Positions 48,274 through 50,041 of a DNA stretch of 64,000 bases are shown one piece after another. The number at the start of each line of letters is the position of its first letter. Positions within the stretch are counted from its first letter, which is position 1. The position numbers and the translations under genes were made by a program. The notes beneath the pieces were generated by a model that did not search any database, was not told the origin of the DNA, and saw only the letters and a list, made by a program, of their open reading frames with translations. Source of the stretch: an uncultured Bryobacterales bacterium (lineage in GTDB: Bacteria; Acidobacteriota; Terriglobia; Bryobacterales; UBA6623). The DNA lies in assembly GCA_951813605.1 (NCBI GenBank), contig OX638379.1, forward strand, positions 4,786,062-4,850,061, read 5' to 3'.

Positions 48274-48373
48274 GACATTCGAATCTACCACGAGATCGAC
48301 GGCCGGCCCGGGATCCGTGCGGGCAGTTCCAAGTACGGTGTTCTGTGTCCGAATACAGCACGGACCACTTGTC

Positions 48374-48411
48374 AATATACGGTTCGCTCCCGAGTTGTCT
48401 ACCGCTCCCGG
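48374..48411. repeat. 38-bp repeat, copy at element end
   Basis: This 38-base sequence, which contains the terminal ggttcgctcccg, recurs at 48962-48999 with a single mismatch (c versus t at the seventh base). It forms the alr-side end of the IS1111-like element. Confidence 0.9.
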
Positions 48412-48639
48412 CCCGATGGACGGCGGTCTGCGCCAATATAATTCGACCTCTGAGTGGAACCGCGATGGTTCCGGGCCACGATGGGCTCCGCGCGCCTCGG
48501 TCCTCATAAACATGGCGACCTCGCAGGGCCATTGACAAGTGCAGGCTTCCGAAACGTGGGTGCGACCTCTTTGTCCATCGATTGGGCTTGGCAGACGAAT
48601 TCAAAGTCCCTGCTCGCAGCTGGGCGCGCCAGCGCGCCC
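48412..48639 (-). ncRNA. Candidate bridge-RNA region of the IS1111-like element
   Basis: IS110-family elements encode a structured bridge RNA in a non-coding end; in the IS1111 group it lies between the transposase stop and the downstream end, which is this stretch. It contains a hairpin (ggaacc-gcgat-ggttcc, 48456-48472). I cannot identify the target- and donor-binding loops by eye, so this rests mainly on position. Confidence 0.3.
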
Positions 48640-49547
48640 TCAGGCCGCCGACGCAGCCTGCGGCTGCATGCCGAACCTCTGGCCGCTGGTCAGCAGGGCC
48701 CAGGCGATCCGCGCCAGGCGGGCGGCCAGCGCCACGATCACGGTGCACCGGTCCTTGGTCTTGAGCATGCGCCGCAGCCATGCCCCCAGCCCGTCGCCAC
48801 GCTTGGCCAGCGTCTCCAGGCCCGAGCGGGCGCAATGCACCAGCAGCGTGCGCACGTAGCGGTTGCCGCGCTTGCTGATGCCTCCCAGGCGCTGCTTGCC
48901 GCCCGTCGAGTTCTCCCGCGGCGTCAGCCCTAGCCAGGCCGCCAGGTCGCGCCCCTTCTCGAATATATGGTTCGCTCCCGAGTTGTCTACCGCTCCCGGT
49001 CTCCCAGGCCGTTGTTGGCATCCTCGAGGATCTCCGGCAGCCGCGCCGCGAAGCGGTGCTTGCCCTGCGGGATCGCGATGCCGCGCTCCAGCAGGAAGCC
49101 GCGGGCCTGATTCACCAGCTGCGCGGAGTTGCCCACCAGCCGCGAGCGGTGGCGGTGCAAGGACTGCATCGCTAGCTGCGCCTCGCTCTTGACGGCCACA
49201 AACCGCATGGTCGGGCGCCGGCAGGCTTCCGCGCAGGCCTCGGTGTCCTTGGTGTCGTTCGTGTCGCGCTTGACGTACTTGGGAGGCATCAGCCGCACGT
49301 CGTGCCCCTGGCCCAGCAGCTGGCGCCCCAGGTGATGGGCGCCGCAGCAGGCCTCCATGCCGATCCGGCACGGATCCATCTTCGCGGTGATCTCCGCGAG
49401 CTTGTCCTTCGAGTACCGGCGGCGCGTGAGCACCCGCCCACTCGCGTCCAGGCCTACGAAGTGCCGCGATGTCTTGGCGAGGTCGAGGCCGATCGTGGCC
49501 ACCTCCTTGAGTACCCTCTTGCGGGATGGTTGTCCGGTCGATGCCAT
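48640..49547 (-). pseudogene. IS110/IS1111 transposase, internal deletion plus frameshift
   Basis: The N-terminal part (49547 to about 49006) is the DEDD nuclease domain (ATIGLDLAKTSRHFVGLDASG, CRIGMEACCGAHHLGRQLL, DTNDTKDTEACAEACRRPTMRFVAVK). The C-terminal part, in another frame (about 48964 to 48640), is the Transposase_20 domain (EKGRDLAAWLGLTPRENSTGGKQRLGGISKRGNRYVRTLL). The linking segment, normally about 70-80 residues including a P-G-I-G motif, is missing, and a 38-bp sequence (48962-48999) sits in its place. A functional full-length transposase cannot be made. Confidence 0.85.
48962..48999. repeat. 38-bp repeat, copy inside the transposase at the deletion junction
   Basis: Second copy of the element-end sequence, in the same orientation as the copy at 48374-48411. 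It lies exactly where the central part of the transposase is missing, creating the frame change. Confidence 0.9.
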
Positions 49548-49641
49548 GCTGGTTCTCCTCTTGAATCGTACGCGGCGCCCACTGCAAGCCGCTGGTTCCA
49601 GCATTGTCGAACTGGCTGCCACCGCTGAACGGGAGCGAACC

Positions 49642-50041
49642 ATCCCATAAACACGAGCTAGGCATCGCCCTTGCGGCTGGTCACCGACAAGCTGCGAATA
49701 TGCGGCCGTCCGCTGGGAACTCAGTCTATCGCCTACCCATCGAACCGAGCAGCACCAAAATAACGGGGCCGAGGTGTCCCACCAGAACACCAAGGATTGA
49801 AGACGCCAAATGCGCCGTTTCACGCAGGCGCAGTGTTTTCTCGCAGTCCATGCTGCCATTCAAAACTCATAAAGCGCGGCACGGCATGGCCTCGTGGCGA
49901 TTCATCATCGACTTTGTCGGGAGCAGGCCTTCAAAACCTGGAAGTCGGCGACGTGCGTTGCCTGAGAGAAGGTGCATGCAACGATGGTCGGATCAGGGTC
50001 GCCTCTCCGAAAACCACTTGACACCGCCCGACCGCCTGTTG
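49642..50041. other. Intergenic region beside the insertion element
   Basis: About 400 bases, less GC-rich than the surroundings. On the minus strand 49726-49851 reads as a 41-codon ORF with a hydrophobic run (LGVLVGHLGPVILVLLGS), which may be a relic of a membrane protein. Nothing else is recognised. Confidence 0.3.

What the first reader, a model, noticed from the sequence alone, without database searches (positions are those of the whole stretch)
48374..49641. IS1111-like element whose transposase core was replaced by a copy of its own end
A 38-bp sequence that carries the 12-bp terminal inverted repeat occurs at the element end (48374) and, with one mismatch, exactly at the site where 70-80 central codons of the transposase are missing (48962). 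This looks like an intramolecular IS110-type recombination that used an internal site and deleted the middle.
Basis: partly seen in the sequence, partly recalled or inferred. Interest (0 to 1): 0.6.

Follow-up and report, generated by a model that had tools for sequence, protein, structure and literature searches.

The report
Decayed IS1111 transposon with nested end
This is a dead bacterial jumping gene of the IS1111 family whose transposase was most likely hit by a second, closely related copy that later lost all but its last 36 bases, so it is ordinary decay, although it shows clearly how the element's guide RNA matches the site where it sits.

Summary
A 38-bp sequence carrying the right end of an IS1111-family element occurs at the element's end (48374-48411) and again, with one mismatch, inside its transposase gene (48962-48999). 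Four relatives lack it there and have about 190 bp of ordinary transposase sequence instead; 186-188 bp (62-63 codons, not 70-80) are missing. The internal copy meets the gene exactly at the element's core dinucleotide TT, as a normal IS1111 insertion joint does. The other junction has no core, only up to 4 bp of microhomology, and a single intramolecular reaction would move the end rather than copy it. The best explanation has two steps: a second copy inserted into the gene at TT, then a deletion removed nearly all of it plus adjacent gene sequence. The element's target guide is an exact 10/10 complement of its outer flank, but reaches only 7/10 at the internal site, and only in a shifted register (about 3% of TT sites do as well). 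No transposase-coding copy in this genome is intact. The element is an ordinary relic; the by-product is a readable bridge-RNA family in Bryobacterales and related families.

The parts
48376..49650 (-). IS1111-family element, decayed (1275 bp; intact relatives about 1430 bp)
   Evidence: Left end TTATGGG-ATGGTTCGCTCCCG and right end CGGGAGCGAACC(G/A)T-ATA, giving extensions of 7 and 3 bp outside the inverted repeats as in PMC11187229; aligned to four relatives
48374..48375 (-). core TT between the right end and the flank
   Evidence: TT is found at both ends of nearly all related copies: xTT-ATGGG ... ATATA-TTx
48381..48392 (-). right subterminal inverted repeat CGGGAGCGAACC
49630..49643 (-). 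left subterminal inverted repeat ATGGTTCGCTCCCG
48964..48999 (-). internal copy of the right end: last 36 bp of a second element, joined to the gene at core TT 48962-48963
   Evidence: absent from intact relatives
49000..49547 (-). 5' part of the transposase gene: DEDD/RuvC domain, 186 aa open frame that ends at a TAG inside the internal end copy
   Evidence: PF01548 E=1.8e-15; P0001; 82% identical to an intact relative
48640..48963 (-). 3' part of the transposase gene: C-terminal domain with the GL-P----TG motif, in another frame
   Evidence: PF02371 E=2.6e-15; 83% identical to residues 245-356 of the intact relative
48425..48561 (-). bridge/seek RNA region in the downstream non-coding region
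   Evidence: consensus fold of 7 copies with two variable patches in an internal loop; model R1 matches here, 151 bits
48532..48541 (-). target guide for the right flank (CACTTGTCAA)
   Evidence: exact reverse complement of the flank TTGACAAGTG at 48366-48375
48508..48514 (-). target guide for the left flank (CATGTTT; flank CGTGTTT)
   Evidence: 6/7 match by inspection
48366..48375 (-). right flank of the insertion site, paired by the guide

Best explanation
A copy of an IS1111-family element (A) sits here at its guided target (TAGCTCGTGT-TT-GACAAGTGG). A second, closely related copy (B) inserted into A's transposase gene, in the same orientation, at the TT of ...GCC-TT-CGAGAAGG; this produced B's right end joined to the gene at the core. 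Later an ordinary deletion ran from a point about 188 bp upstream in A's gene to 36 bp inside B's right end, at a junction with at most 4 bp of microhomology (CCGG). It removed B except for its last 36 bp, together with 62-63 codons of A. Shown: the joint at the core TT, the absence of the piece in relatives, the missing segment, the non-core left junction, and the frame break. Inferred: that B was once complete, the order of events, and which guide RNA took B there.
For: Intact relatives read ...GGGCGAGCC-TT-CGAGAGCGG..., and the window reads ...CATATA-TT-CGAGAAGG..., so the end copy stops exactly at the element boundary and at a native TT. The internal copy has the family's usual end CATATATT, whereas A's own end has CGTATATT, so it descends from a normal end. 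The left junction has no TT. Copies in this genome decay by one-sided or internal deletion: LE-only L005; RE-only L006, L007, L008; and L003 (330 bp), whose whole transposase was lost at an 8-bp near-repeat (GCGGC(T/C)TG). A's guide matches A's own flank 10/10, which confirms the outer ends.
Against: No trace of B's left end or of B's internal sequence remains, so a full nested copy was never seen. No known guide matches the internal site well: A's own guide reaches 7/10 one base out of register, a level that about 3% of TT sites reach. Among the 32 copies scored with their own flank no other guide exceeds 5/10; one degenerate copy outside that set (L055) also reaches 7/10. No strain with the intermediate stage was found.
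Confidence: 0.7

Rival explanations
1. Repair-templated insertion: a break in the transposase gene was repaired by copying 36-38 bp from the element's own right end about 590 bp away and then joining to the other side, deleting the middle.
For: The left junction looks like end joining with short microhomology; the template lies close by; a 37/38 match fits a copy from the element's own end.
Against: The copied piece would have to stop by chance exactly at the element/target boundary, at a TT that is native to the gene. The internal copy has CATATATT where the element's own end has CGTATATT.
Confidence: 0.17
2. Bridge-RNA-directed recombination within a tandem dimer of the element: the RE-LE junction recombined with the internal TT of the downstream copy and deleted the part between, followed by a second deletion inside the upstream copy.
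For: The RE-TT-gene joint is the expected product. [quoted passage not shown] This element's own guide matches the internal site 7/10 in a shifted register.
Against: It still needs a second, non-core deletion. The guide match is weak, near the 3% tail of random TT sites. No dimer is seen in this genome.
Confidence: 0.1
3. One-step intramolecular IS110-type recombination that used an internal site.
For: The right joint is at the core.
Against: It would move, not duplicate, the right end; the left junction has no core.
Confidence: 0.03

Closest known systems
IS1111 family (ISEc11, ISPa11, ISKpn4 type; PMC11187229)
   Same: Subterminal inverted repeats of 12-14 bp, extensions of 7 and 3 bp, DEDD transposase with PF01548 and PF02371 and the GL-P----TG motif, long downstream non-coding region, guide RNA with the top-strand match 5' of the bottom-strand match.
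   Different: The transposase is broken by an internal copy of the right end; copies in this genome are relics. Core TT here.
IS621 / IS110 bridge RNA (PMC11208160)
   Same: Target guides in an internal loop of a folded RNA that pair with both sides of the target around a dinucleotide core.
   Different: The RNA lies downstream of the transposase gene and the order of the two target guides is as in IS1111 rather than IS110; core TT instead of CT.
Non-autonomous (MITE-like) IS derivatives
   Same: L003 in the same genome keeps both ends and the whole RNA region but has no transposase gene.
   Different: Single copy with no amplification seen, so not shown to move; the window element itself is not of this kind.

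Membership tests
IS1111 family | subterminal inverted repeats of 11-13 bp, with 7 bp (left) and 3 bp (right) outside them | tested here: met
   12 bp exact (14 bp with the usual end sequence); TTATGGG outside on the left, ATA on the right, then target TT (rule from PMC11187229)
IS1111 family | DEDD (RuvC-like) N-terminal domain PF01548 | tested here: met
   PF01548 E=1.8e-15 in the remaining 5' part; intact relatives 2e-16 to 4e-19
IS1111 family | C-terminal PF02371 with GL-P----S(T)G motif | tested here: met
   PF02371 E=2.6e-15; GLTPRENSTG in the window frame
IS1111 family | long non-coding region downstream of the transposase gene | tested here: met
   about 265 bp between the stop codon and the right end; conserved fold in 7 copies
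[quoted passage not shown]
   10/10 complement of the right flank, then 6/7 match of the left flank; over 32 copies own-flank matches beat shuffled pairings, 0 of 20000
IS1111 family | no extra target duplication (empty site equals joined flanks) | tested here: inconclusive
   joined flanks found no empty site in 10 other genomes of the genus
IS1111 family | circular intermediate and active transposition | not testable with these tools
   needs an experiment; the window copy has a broken transposase

The most novel reading that the evidence does not exclude
The element's own bridge RNA (or that of a sister with the same guide) sent a copy into its own transposase gene at a near-match site one base out of register (TCGAGAAGGG against TTGACAAGTG, 7/10), so that the RNA-guided element targeted itself.
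Probability: 0.12. Interest if true: 0.35.

Novelty: new member of a known kind. Interest (0 to 1): 0.18.

Why it matters
[quoted passage not shown] If the second copy was directed by the element's own guide, it would be a natural example of self-targeting by an RNA-guided recombinase; the data neither show nor exclude that.

Tried and rejected
and the first genome-contig scan used the wrong reading frame for the 5' part of the gene; they were repeated correctly (the PF02371 result is valid, since that frame is the 3' part). Rfam gave no bridge-RNA match, only chance. The empty site could not be shown: the joined flanks match no single place in related genomes. I first read the internal site as unrelated to the element's guide (4/10 in register); allowing a one-base shift gave 7/10, so that claim was weakened. 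Six copies in relative G010 with an apparently shortened RNA proved to be cut by contig ends. One search for papers combining nested insertion or transposase pseudogenes with the IS110 family found nothing relevant.

Full report
OBSERVATION. The window holds one 38-bp direct repeat in this region, 48374-48411 and 48962-48999, 37/38 identical. A search of the whole window with up to 3 mismatches gives only these two places, and shuffles give none. The 12-bp inverted repeat pairs 48381-48392 with 49630-49641; the internal copy pairs with 49630-49643 over 14 bp. The element is on the minus strand: left end at 49650, transposase ATG at 49547, gene stop at 48640, right end at 48376, then a TT and the flank.

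ENDS AND CORE. Related copies in this genome and in relatives start xTT-ATGGG and nearly all end ATATA-TTx. Counting TTATGGG as the left extension and ATA as the right one gives 7 and 3 bp outside the inverted repeats, the rule for the IS1111 family (PMC11187229). The TT is therefore the core shared by end and target.

INTACT RELATIVES. A DNA search of the family found four relatives in other genomes with the gene region complete (G014:C5 = L017, G015:C310 = L018, G010:C38 = L019, G003:C13 = L020). None carries the 38 bp inside the gene. Where the window has 36 bp between GGCCTGGGAGA and TTCGAGA, G014 has 190 bp. The window thus lacks 186-188 bp, 62-63 codons: the stretch before and at the start of PF02371 (residues about 190-252 of the G014 protein; PF02371 starts at 224). 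G014 and G010 have open frames of 356 and 357 aa. In 80 further relatives the protein match mostly runs as one segment through this region (not inspected one by one).

THE TWO JUNCTIONS. Right junction: the end copy stops exactly at the element boundary and continues with CGAGAAGG, native gene sequence that in relatives is preceded by a TT. This is what an IS1111 insertion makes. Left junction: GGGAGA|CCGGGAGCGG; it has no TT and at most 4 bp (CCGG) are shared with the sequence inside the right end. This looks like an ordinary deletion. A single intramolecular recombination would have a core at both joints and would leave only one right end (inference from the known reaction). The structure therefore needs a second copy and a second event. 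The internal copy also has the family's usual CATATATT, where the element's own end has CGTATATT.

THE GENE IS DEAD. The 5' part (PF01548) ends at a TAG inside the end copy; the 3' part (PF02371) is in another frame. Four further codons are missing upstream. With the G014 protein as query, the window copy is the only one in this genome with both domains left; the other hit is a 67-residue piece. Remaining copies are L002/L004 (about 630 bp, most of the gene gone), L003 (330 bp, ends and RNA region, no gene), LE-only L005 and RE-side fragments such as L006, L007, L008. Loss of all but one end is thus common here, which makes the proposed second deletion ordinary.

THE GUIDE RNA. The downstream non-coding region of seven copies folds into one structure with an internal loop that holds two hypervariable patches. 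A covariance model of it finds matches in 8 of 18 genomes of the family and 30 of 299 of the class. In the window the first patch, CACTTGTCAA, is the exact reverse complement of the right flank TTGACAAGTG; the second, CATGTTT, fits the left flank CGTGTTT 6/7. In G014 the second patch reads TCGCCACAGTT and the left flank TCGCCACAG-TT; in G010 and G003 the first patch matches the right flank over 8 and 9 bases. Over 32 distinct copies the mean match of guide to own flank is 7.0 of 10 against 4.5 for other copies' flanks, and none of 20000 shuffled pairings reaches the sum (copies share ancestry, so this is not an exact probability). This is the arrangement reported for IS1111 elements: top-strand complement first, then bottom-strand match (PMC11187229).

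THE INTERNAL SITE. In register, the window's guide matches the internal site 4/10; one base shifted, 7/10. About 3.3% of all TT sites in the window do as well with the same freedom, and intact genes of relatives contain several such sites. One-base shifts do occur in true targets (for example L060 against L065). So the element's own guide may have taken a copy there, but this is not shown; a copy with a different guide is as likely.

ORGANISM. The closest named protein relatives are Bryobacterales MAGs (Acidobacteriota). The window's own genome is one contig of 6.19 Mb.

VERDICT. Interest is low; the readable guide-target rule is the more useful by-product.

Noticed in passing
L003 1443-1772 (G000:C1 about 5041999-5042330): 330-bp MITE-like copy: both ends and the complete bridge-RNA region, transposase gene removed at an 8-bp near-repeat. 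Its guide fits its flank only partly (6/10).
   Followed up: partly
window 49666-49862: Sequence next to the element's left end is itself repeated: 75% match at G000:C1:115963-116170, and further matches at 3421700, 3427532 and in relatives G013 and G017. Nature unknown.
   Followed up: no
L060, L065, L057 and other G010 contig ends: An amplified copy in a relative genome with right flanks TTGCCTG or TTTGCCTG: same apparent target with a one-base difference in register.
   Followed up: partly
A1 columns 59-69 and 86-92; loci L044-L093: Bridge-RNA family in the same class whose two target guides can be read against the flanks; Rfam has no model that matches it.
   Followed up: partly
window 49272-49277: In-frame loss of four codons (QPFV) in the 5' part of the gene, next to a repeated CGTC.
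   Followed up: no
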